Assembly (NCBI RefSeq): GCF_000162755.2
Contig: NZ_JH413846.1
Span: 1-58,253, forward strand
Length of the DNA stretch: 58,253 bases
From: Legionella drancourtii LLAP12
GTDB lineage: Bacteria; Pseudomonadota; Gammaproteobacteria; Legionellales; Legionellaceae
Direction of reading: 5' to 3'
In this document: positions 52,389-58,253 of the stretch, piece by piece
Layout of the letters: each line of letters starts with the position of its first letter
How positions within the stretch are numbered: position 1 is the stretch's first letter
Program-made: the position numbers and the translations under genes
The notes under the pieces: model-generated
What the model saw: only the letters and a program-made list of their open reading frames with translations
The model's database searches: none
Told to the model about the DNA's origin: nothing

Positions 52389-53633
52389 TTACTTATCAAT
52401 TGATATTAATTTTTTATGTCTGGCCGACTGATGTCGCTCAATGAGATCGATATCATTATATCGATCGGTAATGGCACTTGAACTATGACCAGCATCATCG
52501 CGTACATGTGCAACAGGACGCCCACGCATATTAATATCATCTGAAATACCTGTATGGCGCAACCAATGCACTGTTGCTGATTCAAAACTATCAGCCTCTG
52601 TTGAAAAGCCCGTGTTTCTTAAATTTTGCATGGTGTTATCAAAGCAATCTTGAACCAAACGACGAATGTGCCTTGAGCTAATCATTGCACCGTTGCCTTT
52701 ATCTTTAGGCAATAATGGGCTTTGATCATTCATCGAGGGGAGGGGTGTTAACTGCATACTGACACGATATCGCTTGAGTGCTGCAAGCATGTCATCAGGT
52801 ACGGCGATATCCCGCATTTTGTTACCTTTTCCTACCGTCTTAAACCACCAACACCCTTGGCTATCTTGATAAAAATGTCGCATTTCTGGTGTCCAACGAT
52901 CACTGGCACATAGTTCAGATATACGTAAGTACAATAAATAAAGTGCAGAAATAATAAACAAGGTCCGTTCATGCTTATCGGGTGCATTGATTGCCATATT
53001 TTTAACTGTATCAAGACAAGTTTGCCATTGCTTTTCACTCAAGCGCATCACTTGTGCTTGATGTTGAGTTTTTTGGATATATTTGCTTTTTTGTTTGATT
53101 AAAGTAATCGGGTTAATGGATACCTTTTCCTCTAAGGCCAAGTAATTATAAAAACTGCTCAGCACTGTAAAAATCTCACGGATTGCTTTTTGTGATAATT
53201 GATAGTCTTGCTTATTGGGCTTCAATCCATTTTTATGATCAATTTTACTTACAGTGGCTACAAATGGGCGCCACTCATGGTTGGGGATGCGCTCGCCGTT
53301 ACGTGTAACGAATCGCGATACTTTTTTAAATCCAATCCATGATTTTGGTGGGTTGAGACAAAATTGCACGTAATTTTCAATATTTTGCCGTTTCAAATCC
53401 AGTAATGATTTTTTCTCAATCAACCAAGCCCATTGGATTAATCGTTCAGTTTCTCTGCGATACGACTCAAATGTAGCCTTGTTATTATCATATTGCTTTA
53501 GGTAATCCAATACACAACTCAGATCATGGGGCGCAAAAGAGGGGGATACAAATGTTTGCCAGTTTTTTTCTTTAAGATGATCGCAAGTGTCAATCAGTGG
53601 TTGTGGCATAGGAAATGGTATTTTTGACATCAT
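52389..53633 (-). CDS. Tyrosine site-specific recombinase (XerC/XerD-like)
   Basis: A 414-residue phage-type recombinase. The N-terminal SAM-like core-binding domain covers residues 15-190 (QYDNNKATFESYRRETERLIQWAW). The catalytic domain shows Arg in LLYLRISELCAS, Lys in TVGKGNKMRDI, HWLRHTG, AGHSSS and the nucleophile in ITDRYND, so all catalytic residues are present. It starts in an ATGA overlap with the YhcG-like gene, so the two are co-translated. It may integrate the element or resolve plasmid multimers. Confidence 0.92.
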   Translation of the reverse strand: MMSKIPFPMPQPLIDTCDHLKEKNWQTFVSPSFAPHDLSCVLDYLKQYDNNKATFESYRRETERLIQWAWLIEKKSLLDLKRQNIENYVQFCLNPPKSWIGFKKVSRFVTRNGERIPNHEWRPFVATVSKIDHKNGLKPNKQDYQLSQKAIREIFTVLSSFYNYLALEEKVSINPITLIKQKSKYIQKTQHQAQVMRLSEKQWQTCLDTVKNMAINAPDKHERTLFIISALYLLYLRISELCASDRWTPEMRHFYQDSQGCWWFKTVGKGNKMRDIAVPDDMLAALKRYRVSMQLTPLPSMNDQSPLLPKDKGNGAMISSRHIRRLVQDCFDNTMQNLRNTGFSTEADSFESATVHWLRHTGISDDINMRGRPVAHVRDDAGHSSSAITDRYNDIDLIERHQSARHKKLISIDK

Positions 53634-54700
53634 TCATCATCATTGTTTTTTTCTAAACTATCTAAATCTTCCAGCGTATGTAATATTTCATGCTGCAACT
53701 CTTGTGGATCTGGAAGTTTACCAATGAAATCTTTAGGTAATATTTTTGATAATTGAATTTCGGCAATGCCAACCGGCTTATGAAGATCCCGCAAAGCATA
53801 ATCCACTTCAATAGAATTACGATTTGTGCAAAGTATCAACCCAATTGATGGATTTTCATCAGGTTGTTTGACATAGTCATCTAATAGCCCTAAATATAAA
53901 TTCATTTTTCCCGCGTATTCTGCCTTGAATTTTCCGCCTTTTAATTCCACGCAAAAAAGCGAATGAAGGATCCTGTTGAAAAATAAGAGATCAATATAAT
54001 ATTCGTTATCTTTTGCTACGATACGGTATTGGTTTCCGATAAATGCGAACCCTTTGCCTAACATCATAATAACTTCTTTAATTCGGCTAACCATTTCGTT
54101 TTCAATTTGCTTTTCTAAAAGCGCTTTTGATCCTGCGAAAGGCTGTGTAACCTCCATAAAATAACTAGCTTTAAGAATATTATCAGCTCTTGCCGCTAAT
54201 TGGGGTGGTAACGTTAATTCAAAATTGTGCTTTTTGTCATGGATACATTCACGTTCATAGGCTTGTGATTTAATTTGTAGTTCAATGATATCGCGACTAC
54301 ACATACTGTCACTGGCCATTTGTAAATAATATTTACGTGCATCTAGCGATTTGACTCGATGCATAATCATTAAATTTGTACTCCAGCGAACATTCTTTGC
54401 AATATCTAATAATTCAGGTGAGCTTATATACTCATAATAAAATTGTCGCATATGACGAAGATTTTGTTCTGAATAACCTCTTGCGTTTGAAAATGCTAGT
54501 GTTAGATCCTGAGATAATTTCGCCAGTATTTGTTTCCCCCATTGATAATGATCAGCTGTTTTGGCGAGCAACTTTCCTAGCTCCCAATATAGTTCTATAT
54601 TTGTACGATTCGCATTTTGTAAGAAATATTGCTGCGCACTCATAATTGTTTGTTTAGCATCATGCAGTACGTTATTATATTCATTAGGTTCAATCTTCAT
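53630..54700 (-). CDS. YhcG/DUF1016-family PDDEXK nuclease-like protein
   Basis: A 356-residue protein. The N-terminal domain matches DUF1016_N (ANRTNIELYWELGKLLAKTA; YSEQNLRHMRQFYYEY; IMHRVKSLDARKYY). The C-terminal nuclease-like domain has KGFAFIGNQYRIVAKDNEYYIDLLFFNRILHSLFCVELK, in which D and ExK fit the PDDEXK pattern. Such proteins are found next to mobile elements and restriction systems and are thought to act in DNA breakage or recombination. It starts behind the 54714-54813 palindromes, which probably regulate it. Confidence 0.88.
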   Translation of the reverse strand: MKIEPNEYNNVLHDAKQTIMSAQQYFLQNANRTNIELYWELGKLLAKTADHYQWGKQILAKLSQDLTLAFSNARGYSEQNLRHMRQFYYEYISSPELLDIAKNVRWSTNLMIMHRVKSLDARKYYLQMASDSMCSRDIIELQIKSQAYERECIHDKKHNFELTLPPQLAARADNILKASYFMEVTQPFAGSKALLEKQIENEMVSRIKEVIMMLGKGFAFIGNQYRIVAKDNEYYIDLLFFNRILHSLFCVELKGGKFKAEYAGKMNLYLGLLDDYVKQPDENPSIGLILCTNRNSIEVDYALRDLHKPVGIAEIQLSKILPKDFIGKLPDPQELQHEILHTLEDLDSLEKNNDDE

Positions 54701-55498: not shown

Positions 55499-55545
55499 CG
55501 CTGCGTCACTGGCCTTTTACTGCCAGTGACGCAGCGATTCGCTGC
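55499..55545. repeat. 15-bp hairpin with an alternative overlapping stem
   Basis: CGCTGCGTCACTGGC (55499-55513) pairs perfectly with 55522-55536. GCAGCG at 55531-55536 can instead pair with CGCTGC at 55540-55545, so the two foldings exclude each other. A small CGGGC/GCCCG hairpin (55488-55500) abuts it. Confidence 0.7.
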
Positions 55546-55671: not shown

Positions 55672-55700
55672 TTGTGAGATATTCCGGCCTTTGCTACACT
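55672..55700 (+). promoter_or_regulatory. Sigma70-like promoter of the ribozyme/integrase transcript
   Basis: TTGTGA at 55672-55677 and TACACT at 55695-55700 with a 17-base spacer. The predicted start is about 55706-55708, which is the first base of helix I of the hammerhead ribozyme. This coincidence supports both calls. Confidence 0.7.
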
Positions 55701-55705
55701 AACTT

Positions 55706-55768
55706 CAATCACAACTGATGAATCCGTGAAAGCCGGATGAAACCAAGTTAACCTGGTCTTGTGAATTG
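55706..55768 (+). ncRNA. Hammerhead ribozyme, type I, in the leader of the integrase operon
   Basis: All conserved elements are present. CTGATGA lies at 55715-55721. Helix II is ATCCG (55722-55726) with CGGAT (55734-55738) and a 7-base loop. GAAA is at 55739-55742. Helix III is ACCA (55742-55745) with TGGT (55754-55757), including the A15.1-U16.1 pair. The cleavage triplet GTC ends at 55758. Helix I is TCACAA (55709-55714) with TTGTGA (55759-55764), extended by CAA/TTG after a bulged A. Helices II and III are closed by loops, so it is type I. Cleavage after C55758 would leave a downstream mRNA with 5'-OH starting UUGUGAA. The gene order after it is the 78-residue protein, then the two integrases. 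Confidence 0.88.
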
Positions 55769-56126
55769 CTACCCTAATTCCCTAACTTCTGTAGCGGACG
55801 CCTAGTCGGGAACCAAAATTAACCTGAATCTTCAGGACCTAAAAAAACTAATTATTTTAATAATTAGTCACTAACAACATGTCGTACATGTTGACCTATC
55901 CTAATCAACGCAATGCTCTGCACCTCGTTGAACCTCTTGAATGATTAATAACTTATTAATTATTTGAATAAAAAACTTTGACTATAAATTGTGACTTTTT
56001 GACCCATTACATTTATTTTTTTGTGTTGTGAATTAATACACTGAAATTTTTGATGGTTTGTATTGTGAAGCAATGGATTAAATGACTTTGCTTTTTTTGT
56101 TTTTAAAATTTTAACTGGAGAACTCT
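55769..56126 (+). other. Long structured leader between ribozyme and first gene
   Basis: About 360 bases of untranslated leader. It contains hairpins CCTGAA/TTCAGG (55823-55836), ACTAATTAT/ATAATTAGT (55847-55868) and CAACATGT/ACATGTTG (55875-55893), then AT-rich sequence and a TGGAGAAC ribosome site before 56127. The length and hairpins suggest RNA-level control or that the DNA also serves as a recombination site. Confidence 0.5.
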
Positions 56127-56445: not shown

Positions 56446-56545
56446 ACTACGGGTTTACCCCCGCATCGAGCCTAGTGGTCCTTACCAAGCATCATTTATA
56501 TGAGCTGCTCGAATAACACTAAACACAATCCTGGGTAAACGTAGT
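56446..56545 (+). promoter_or_regulatory. Structured leader of the integrase pair
   Basis: The outer helix pairs ACTAC plus GTTTACCC (56446-56460) with GGGTAAAC plus GTAGT (56533-56545), with a GG bulge. Inside are TCGAGC/GCTCGA (56466-56471 with 56507-56512) and the hairpin TGGT/ACCA (56476-56487). The structure ends 25 bases before the integrase start, near its ribosome site. It looks like an RNA element; no known family recognised. Confidence 0.5.
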
Positions 56546-56569: not shown

Positions 56570-57379
56570 ATGAGCAGAAAGCAAAAATTAACCCAAACCA
56601 TGATTCAATATCTGAAACAGGACAACCAGGGATCATTGAATACAAGACAGGTTCGCCTTTTTTCGATGAATCGAATCATTGATGATTTATTTGCAGCGCG
56701 AATCGTTCCCATAACCTGGTATGCACTCACAACAGAACATATTAAAAAGTTAGTGAGTTATTGGCAAAATAAAGGGTTAAAAATGGCAACCATTATGAAT
56801 TACCTGGTTTGTTTGCGCTATTTTTTAAATAAAATTAATCACACTATAGAGGGTATAGACAATCAATCCTTGAGTCTTGTAAAACCACGAAACAACATGA
56901 AGCCAGAAATTCATAGCGACACCATTTTAAATGCAATCAACGAGCCCCTTGCTTATCTATTATTTGCTTTACAAGCCAAATTTGGTCTCACACTCCTTGA
57001 ATCCATGTTTCTTGTACCAGCCATCCACATTCATGAAAATGAACTTTGGATTACTAGAGAAATCAGCACTAATCGTAAAGATCGCCTGATACCCATTATT
57101 AATGAAGAGCAACAAATAATCATTACTAAGTTAGTCACCTTGACGGAAAACAAAAAGAGCCTGCATCAACAATTTGGCGAACATCATTTACGCCTTGCTT
57201 ATAAATTTGCATTAAGTGCCTTAAAACTCCCTACGCAGGTGAGCTATCGATATTTATATGCTAAATCACGCTTTGATCATTTATGTAAAAACCACAGCAA
57301 ATCAGATGCAAAAAAAATGGTGATTACTGAAACAAACATTAATAAAACCAGTCCCCTTTGGAACACAATCCATGAGTAA
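56570..57379 (+). CDS. Catalytically degenerate integrase-like protein
   Basis: A 269-residue paralogue of the next gene. It keeps the N-terminal core-binding pattern (NTRQVRLFSMNRIIDDLFAA; LVSYWQNKGLKMATIMNYLVCLRYFLNKI). In the catalytic part the motif that should read FGLRRxE is FGLTLLES, so the first catalytic Arg is lost. The HxLR position reads VSYRYLYA, without His. No tyrosine nucleophile segment is seen before the stop. It overlaps the next gene by eight bases (ATGAGTAA). It may be an inactive partner subunit or a dying duplicate. Confidence 0.75.
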   Translation: MSRKQKLTQTMIQYLKQDNQGSLNTRQVRLFSMNRIIDDLFAARIVPITWYALTTEHIKKLVSYWQNKGLKMATIMNYLVCLRYFLNKINHTIEGIDNQSLSLVKPRNNMKPEIHSDTILNAINEPLAYLLFALQAKFGLTLLESMFLVPAIHIHENELWITREISTNRKDRLIPIINEEQQIIITKLVTLTENKKSLHQQFGEHHLRLAYKFALSALKLPTQVSYRYLYAKSRFDHLCKNHSKSDAKKMVITETNINKTSPLWNTIHE

Positions 57380-58253
57380 AACAAAATTGAGAAGTGCTAC
57401 TTACTCCATTCATCATCTGGTGAAACAGATGAGGATCTCATCCTTCAATACTCGAGCGGATACACGTGTCATGCTGGGGCGCTGCATTAAAGACTTACAT
57501 GAGCTGGGCTTTAAAGTAGGACATATCAAAGGAATTAAAGAGCGACATGTCCACGCCTTAATAGAACATTGGAAAAACCAGGGGAAAAATCCAGCCACCA
57601 TTAAAAATTACATGGCTAAACTGCGCAAAATGGCAATACAACTAGGCACTCCAGAATTGATTAAATCAGAAAACACTTACTATCAAATTGAAAGTCGCTC
57701 TTACGTCCCCTCAGTCAATAAAGCCATTACTGATATTAATTTTTCAAAGTGTCGAGATGCTCATATACGCTTGTCACTTGAAGGCCAGGCATTATTTGGA
57801 TTTAGGCGTGAAGAATCACTTAAATTTACCTTAAGTGAGGCTTATGAAGGAAGCCATCTTAATATCCAGCCCAGCTGGACCAAAGGTGGTATAGGCCGGA
57901 TTATTAAAATAAGGACTGAGGAACAGCGACAATGGCTTAATCGAGTCAGCCAGCTAGTCCGTCCTGGACAATCGTTGATACCACCAGAGAAGTCCTATAA
58001 AGAACAGGTGGGACATTATAAAACGATTACAGCTCAATTAGGTCTCTCTAATTTACATGGGCTTCGACATGCCTATGCACAACGTCGTTATCACGAACTG
58101 ACCTGCTGGTTTGATGAAAACAAACAAGGACTTTTGCCACCCATTGCAGGAGGAAAACCTTTTAAAGAGTTGTCACCAAAAGAAAAAGACTGGGACATAC
58201 GTGCCAGACAAATTATTTCCAGAGAATTAGGTCACTCCAGAATGTCGATAACC
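57372..58253 (+). CDS. Integrase, tyrosine recombinase (partial, runs off the window)
   Basis: At least 294 codons, open to the window end. The N-terminal core-binding region (SSFNTRADTRVMLGRCIKDL; WKNQGKNPATIKNYMAKLRKM) resembles phage_int_SAM/Integrase_1 families. Catalytic residues are present: Arg in ALFGFRREESLKF, Lys in SWTKGGIGR, HGLRHAYAQ and ELGHSRMS. The tyrosine lies beyond the window. It is active in pattern, in contrast to the degenerate partner before it. It is likely the integrase of the element, expressed from the ribozyme-led transcript. Confidence 0.88.
   Translation, partial: MSKTKLRSATYSIHHLVKQMRISSFNTRADTRVMLGRCIKDLHELGFKVGHIKGIKERHVHALIEHWKNQGKNPATIKNYMAKLRKMAIQLGTPELIKSENTYYQIESRSYVPSVNKAITDINFSKCRDAHIRLSLEGQALFGFRREESLKFTLSEAYEGSHLNIQPSWTKGGIGRIIKIRTEEQRQWLNRVSQLVRPGQSLIPPEKSYKEQVGHYKTITAQLGLSNLHGLRHAYAQRRYHELTCWFDENKQGLLPPIAGGKPFKELSPKEKDWDIRARQIISRELGHSRMSIT

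What the first reader, a model, noticed from the sequence alone, without database searches (positions are those of the whole stretch)
55706..55768. Hammerhead ribozyme at the start of the integrase transcript
The sequence directly shows a full type I hammerhead: CTGATGA, helix II, GAAA, helix III with the A-U pair, GTC and a 6-bp helix I plus bulge extension. It begins at the start site predicted from a 17-spaced sigma70-like promoter. Self-cleavage would give the integrase mRNA a 5'-OH end and could affect its stability or coordinate expression with excision. A hammerhead leading an integrase operon in a Legionella mobile element would be a new regulatory layer, to my knowledge.
Basis: seen in the sequence. 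Interest (0 to 1): 0.95.

Follow-up and report, generated by a model that had tools for sequence, protein, structure and literature searches.

The report
Hammerhead ribozyme leading an integrase operon
A small RNA that should cut itself sits at the predicted start of the integrase message of a Legionella mobile element, next to a knotted RNA fold, and the same pair stands before other early genes of such elements in related bacteria.

Summary
The hammerhead is real at the stated place. Its fixed core letters are intact in 98 of 102 distinct aligned copies and its three helices covary. The module occurs in 33 of 45 genomes of one Legionella genus and 85 of 143 of the order, but 1 of 398 of a phylum sample. 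(2) Of 115 copies, 61 (this window included) lie before tyrosine recombinases with a RAGATH-13 motif between, 41 before ssb and/or ardA, 13 before neither. (3) Promoter-like boxes tend to lie at one short distance upstream (62 of 102 upstream sequences), so transcription should begin at the ribozyme's first nucleotides. Likely role: trading the 5' triphosphate for a 5'-OH next to a pseudoknot, giving a stable or separately controlled mRNA for establishment genes. This is inferred; cleavage was not tested. Hammerheads beside integrases, and before ardA in Legionella, were reported in 2011, so this is a new variant of a known kind.

The parts
55503..55532 (.). Perfect inverted repeat GCGTCACTG-N12-CAGTGACGC, candidate recombinase core site
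   Evidence: 0 expected by chance in the window; exact form upstream of 58 of 67 copies with the RAGATH-13 motif, at -157 to -164 or, in the window's group, -202 to -214, and of 2 of 48 other copies
55672..55700 (+). Promoter-like boxes TTGTGA-N17-TACACT with TG before the second (55672-55677, 55695-55700)
   Evidence: Sequence; best promoter match has its -10 box start at -23..-17 from the core in 42 of 58 copies with the RAGATH-13 motif and 20 of 44 others, 4.4% expected; not listed by the scan
55706..55768 (+). Type I hammerhead ribozyme; helix I 55710-55714/55759-55763 (window-type extension to 55706/55768), helix II 55722-55726/55734-55738, helix III 55742-55745/55754-55757; predicted cleavage between 55758 and 55759
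55768..55812 (+). H-type pseudoknot: stem 1 55768-55772/55791-55795 (GCTAC/GTAGC), stem 2 55778-55782/55808-55812 (TTCCC/GGGAA)
   Evidence: Covariation on 102 distinct copies, strong for stem 1, slight for stem 2; starts 9 nt after C17 in 85, 10 in 15, 8 in 2 of 102
55791..55870 (+). Weak RAGATH-32 (RF02922) match: 3' part of the pseudoknot plus a hairpin
   Evidence: 16.1 bits, E 0.69, below its cut-off of 41.8; L006, L007, L008, L010 match at 95-99 bits
56127..56363 (+). 78-aa ORF of unknown function
   Evidence: No Pfam match; family F7 with 8 members among the downstream regions of the 115 copies, all of the window's group
56449..56540 (+). RAGATH-13 RNA (RF02688), directly before the recombinases
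   Evidence: 83.8 bits, over its cut-off of 80
56570..57379 (+). Tyrosine recombinase 1 (Phage_int_SAM_2)
57372..58253 (+). Tyrosine recombinase 2 (Phage_int_SAM_2, Integrase_1), cut by the window end

Best explanation
A hammerhead at the transcription start, joined to a pseudoknot. RNA polymerase starts at the first nucleotides of the ribozyme; the ribozyme folds and cuts itself off after C17 (55758); the remaining mRNA begins with a 5'-OH and, about 9 nt later, a compact H-type pseudoknot. This would hide the mRNA from decay enzymes that sense a 5' phosphate, keeping integrase and ssb/ardA messages alive while an incoming element establishes itself; where the second module lies close behind the second recombinase it would also separate the two messages. 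Shown: structure, conservation, spacing, gene context. Inferred: cleavage, start site, stabilisation, timing.
For: Core intact in 98 of 102 distinct copies. 97.1% of pair cells formed, 20 of 24 pairs with changes on both sides, 0 of 500 shuffles as high; sliding the partners drops pairing to 34-45%. Cleavage-to-pseudoknot spacing of 8-10 nt in 102 of 102. Promoter-like boxes favour one distance. Context of 115 copies: recombinase first in 61, each with the RAGATH-13 motif; ssb or ardA first in 41, none with it; neither in 13. SSB and ArdA by Pfam on one representative each. Leading-region SSB and anti-restriction genes are linked to early establishment of plasmids (PMC11541004, passages).
Against: No cleavage, 5'-end or stability data. 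The window promoter is not called by the scan, and in 40 of 102 upstream sequences the best promoter-like match lies outside -23..-17. Rfam hammerhead models do not call it. The stability step rests on general knowledge of bacterial mRNA decay, not on a call. Copies share ancestry, which inflates the counts. Related recombinase or ardA loci in four other genera have no module, 0 of 4. 8 of the 41 ssb/ardA copies, those of the window's group among them, have ssb but no ardA within the 4.2 kb read.
Confidence: 0.55

Rival explanations
1. Processing of long read-through transcripts: hammerheads cut polycistronic RNA into gene blocks, so the recombinase and ssb/ardA blocks are released separately.
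For: In 30 of 31 multi-copy sources a module with RAGATH-13 comes first and another follows on the same strand 2.2-9.2 kb on; in L001, L002, L003 and L005 the second lies about 50-60 nt behind the stop of recombinase 2. Proposed for prophages in PMC3088659.
Against: Does not by itself predict promoter-like boxes at one short distance before the ribozyme, nor the constant pseudoknot.
Confidence: 0.25
2. The pseudoknot is a helper or ligand-sensing domain that tunes the ribozyme, making cleavage a switch for recombinase and ssb/ardA expression.
For: Link of 3-5 nt between helix I and the pseudoknot in 102 of 102 copies; helix I is short and open; by eye, pseudoknot letters are more conserved than pairing alone needs.
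Against: No riboswitch family matched in the leader. The pairing of core with the pseudoknot 3' strand offered by RNAalifold shows no covariation, 0 of 5 pairs.
Confidence: 0.15
3. A DNA-level element such as a single-strand promoter or recombination site, the RNA resemblance being incidental.
For: An inverted repeat with a variable centre lies upstream on the recombinase side; leading-region genes elsewhere use single-strand promoters; in L063 the single strand folds strongly, with a small hairpin over the -35 box.
Against: Core letters and covariation follow the hammerhead rules; the window's promoter region does not fold better than shuffles as DNA, z 0.17 and 0.36; the repeat is absent from 46 of 48 copies without RAGATH-13.
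Confidence: 0.04
4. Chance resemblance or a dead relic.
For: Core pattern alone expected 0.24 times per window; single-sequence fold energy ordinary.
Against: 0 of 200 shuffles give the full descriptor; module found across an order.
Confidence: 0.01

Closest known systems
Bacterial hammerhead ribozymes near integrases and ardA (Perreault et al. 2011, PMC3088659; sections 6 and 11 part 1 read)
   Same: Same core, near integrases; the ardA behind a hammerhead in three Legionella strains is probably our ssb/ardA class
   Different: The sections read do not describe the pseudoknot unit, a start-site position in Legionella, the use on both operons or RAGATH-13
Rfam RAGATH-32 (RF02922)
   Same: Its first positions are the 3' half of our pseudoknot
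   Different: The Rfam model starts inside the pseudoknot and leaves these positions unpaired; the 5' partner and the ribozyme lie outside it
Rfam RAGATH-13 (RF02688)
   Same: The window copy is a member, 83.8 bits over 80
   Different: A separate RNA further down the same leader; Rfam types it as ribozyme, which was not tested here
HHphage of haloviruses HF1/HF2 (described in PMC3088659)
   Same: Hammerhead within three nucleotides of the mapped 5' end of an early transcript
   Different: Archaeal virus, helicase gene, variant hammerhead

Membership tests
Hammerhead ribozyme, type I | Core C3 U4 G5 A6 N7 G8 A9 / G12 A13 A14 / A15.1-U16.1 / H17 (numbering recalled) | tested here: met
   Window matches; 98 of 102 distinct copies intact
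Hammerhead ribozyme, type I | Three helices, helix I open | tested here: met
   Covariation in all three
Hammerhead ribozyme, type I | Match to an Rfam hammerhead model | tested here: not met
   None at E 10 for the window; a relative gets 16.2 (RAGATH-1-hammerhead) and 14.3 bits (Hammerhead_3), below cut-offs. I take this as a limit of the models, not a chemical criterion
Hammerhead ribozyme, type I | Self-cleavage leaving 5'-OH and 2',3'-cyclic phosphate | not testable with these tools
   No assay
Hammerhead ribozyme, type I | Tertiary contact between stems I and II | not tested
   Only looked at by eye, no clear pattern
RAGATH-32 | Rfam score over cut-off | tested here: not met
   Window 16.1 against 41.8 bits; met by L006, L007, L008, L010 of the ten loci
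RAGATH-13 | Rfam score over cut-off | tested here: met

The most novel reading that the evidence does not exclude
A dedicated 5'-end replacement device: a ribozyme placed at +1 and coupled to a pseudoknot, used by a family of mobile elements to give their establishment-phase mRNAs (recombinases, ssb, ardA) an unusual 5'-OH, pseudoknot-capped end.
Probability: 0.4. Interest if true: 0.82.

Novelty: new variant of a known kind. Interest (0 to 1): 0.6.

Why it matters
Perreault et al. 2011 left the biological function of bacterial hammerheads unclear. Here is a family with about a hundred aligned copies in which partner (pseudoknot), spacing and target genes (recombinases; ssb/ardA) are steady and the predicted transcription start often coincides with the ribozyme, so a function can be posed and tested. 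It also gives a structural meaning to the conserved 5' part of RAGATH-32.

Tried and rejected
Single-strand (Frpo-like) promoter: the window promoter region does not fold better than shuffles as DNA; set aside for the window only. The L063 region does fold strongly (z -5.95 and -4.21), mostly through a hairpin upstream of the promoter, with a small one over the -35 box.

Pairing of the ribozyme core with the pseudoknot 3' strand, offered by RNAalifold: no covariation.

Spread: loci from Piscirickettsia, Halioglobus, Pleionea and Acinetobacter gave no R1 match at E 1, 0 of 4. Window DNA found nothing in plasmids or phages, recombinase 1 nothing in viral contigs. In the class sample 5 of 369 genomes matched, G001 and G047 of them already in the genus set; G342 (a recombinase-like gene downstream) and G073 (one copy before an ardA-like gene, one before nothing recognised) have diverged forms. 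A pseudoknot finder succeeded on 1 of these 3 loci (L142) and on 2 of 5 ribozymes in named Legionella records; it also fires at 109 of 1500 random positions, so it is weak evidence.

Element edge: I first read as showing that similarity of left flanks stops at the inverted repeat. It does not: the flanks were cut there. What it shows is that 32 of 59 left flanks have no partner over 60 nt, and 27 do.

Literature: searches listed no paper that by title, abstract start or terms describes the ribozyme-pseudoknot pair (lists capped in 26, 54 and 87); no paper holds 'RAGATH-13'. The two papers that I recall as defining RAGATH are not held, so prior notice there cannot be excluded.

Full report
Observation. 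The letters are as described: CTGATGA at 55715, helix II, GAAA, helix III and GTC ending at 55758. The core pattern alone is expected 0.24 times in a window of this make-up, but the three-helix descriptor hits once in the window and in 0 of 200 shuffles. Rfam calls RAGATH-13 at 56449-56540 and no hammerhead. The folding energy of the single sequence is not special.

Relatives. The second recombinase led to 10 Legionella loci. In 9 of 10 (L002-L010) a hammerhead core lies upstream of the recombinases; in L001 the upstream sequence differs. L001-L005 have a second one behind recombinase 2: about 50-60 nt behind its stop in L001, L002, L003 and L005, about 200 in L004; the window ends before that place. 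L006-L008 have a second one about 6 kb on; L009 and L010 show none in the DNA held.

The module. Aligning 16 copies showed a second block right after the ribozyme: GCUAC..UUCCC..GUAGC..GGGAA. A model of 120 positions (R1) found the module in 33 of 45 genomes of the genus, 85 of 143 of the order, 5 of 369 of a class sample and 1 of 398 of a phylum sample; the samples overlap (G001 is in all), and with over 40 genomes the tool uses stricter filters that lose weak matches. I fetched 80 regions and aligned 115 matches, 102 distinct, from these, L005 and the window. The further copies found by the order search were not aligned.

Covariation. With five helices named, the two of the pseudoknot included, 97.1% of 2373 cells are paired, 20 of 24 pairs have changes on both sides, 288 cells against a mean of 87 in shuffles, 0 of 500 as high. 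Pseudoknot stem 2 is weakest: 94.8% paired, 5 doubly changed cells over 4 pairs. The alignment was fitted to the model's structure, which favours helices I-III and stem 1; stem 2 was not in the model. The first 16 copies, aligned without a model, gave 12 of 24 pairs with double changes, stem 2 none.

Core and spacing. All 12 fixed core letters are intact in 98 of 102; the four exceptions score low or lie near other copies and may be relics. The pseudoknot begins 9 nt after C17 in 85, 10 in 15 and 8 in 2.

Context. Of 115 copies (not made distinct), 61 have a recombinase ORF starting within 800 nt, each with the RAGATH-13 motif; 44 of the 61 have two recombinase ORFs within 2.3 kb, 17 one. 41 have ssb or ardA starting within 1300 nt, none with the motif: 14 have both, 19 ardA without ssb, 8 ssb without ardA in 4.2 kb. 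13 have neither, 6 of them with the motif. The motif is a 10-letter pattern with four variants, not the full model. Of 31 sources with several copies, 30 have a RAGATH-13 copy first on the same strand; L118 has only copies without it. Named plasmid records with the module: L. adelaidensis, L. israelensis and L. fallonii. One SSB and one ArdA representative were checked with Pfam.

Promoter. In the copies with RAGATH-13 a motif like TTGC..TTTGCTAATTT recurs, in many others CTTGATAAT or TAGTATAAT. One search used 102 upstream sequences (repeats removed; two without a core and two with short flanks left out). A simple sigma70 score peaks with the -10 box start at -20..-14 from the core: 69 of 102 score 8 or more, against 3-34 in the other 7-nt bins. 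The start would then fall some 7-9 nt before the core, at the first bases of helix I; in the window about 55707. The general promoter scan does not list it.

Reading. The ribozyme looks built to remove the first ~53 nt of its own transcript. General knowledge, not a call: bacterial decay often begins by turning a 5' triphosphate into a monophosphate, and a 5'-OH end escapes that; a pseudoknot near such an end could add protection. SSB and anti-restriction genes are common in the early-entering region of conjugative plasmids (passages of PMC11541004), and an integrase is needed in the same phase, so a shared leader makes sense. None of this was measured.

Novelty. Hammerheads near integrases and an ardA behind one in Legionella are in print since 2011. 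New here, as far as the searches named in Tried and rejected show: the ribozyme-pseudoknot unit, its place at the predicted start site, its use on both operons, and the reading of RAGATH-32 as a truncated part of it.

Noticed in passing
window 55503-55532; similar place in many loci: Inverted repeat GCGTCACTG-N-CAGTGACGC (N mostly 10-12) whose centre differs even between near-identical flanks and in L107 is the reverse complement of that in L070; found in 28 of 45 genomes of the genus. It resembles a tyrosine recombinase core site. 9 of 67 RAGATH-13 copies lack the exact form, two of them with too little flank. L010 and L006 differ left of it and agree right of it.
   Followed up: partly
L099 about 1941-2132 and L079: Two such repeats 163 nt apart, as if one element had landed beside the remains of another.
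   Followed up: partly
L091 3236-3400: A hybrid module: ribozyme and first pseudoknot half of the recombinase class, second half and following genes of the ssb/ardA class; looks like recombination or deletion between two modules, or an assembly error.
   Followed up: no
L079, L085, L099, L106, L119: Copies with a shortened helix II region and none of the paired recombinase family within 4.2 kb; all but L085 keep the RAGATH-13 motif.
   Followed up: no
window 52389-54700: Minus-strand pair of a phage integrase family protein and a YhcG-like (DUF1016) nuclease beside the integrase operon.
   Followed up: no
L010 2842-2889: Guanidine-II riboswitch on the other strand beyond the recombinases.
   Followed up: no
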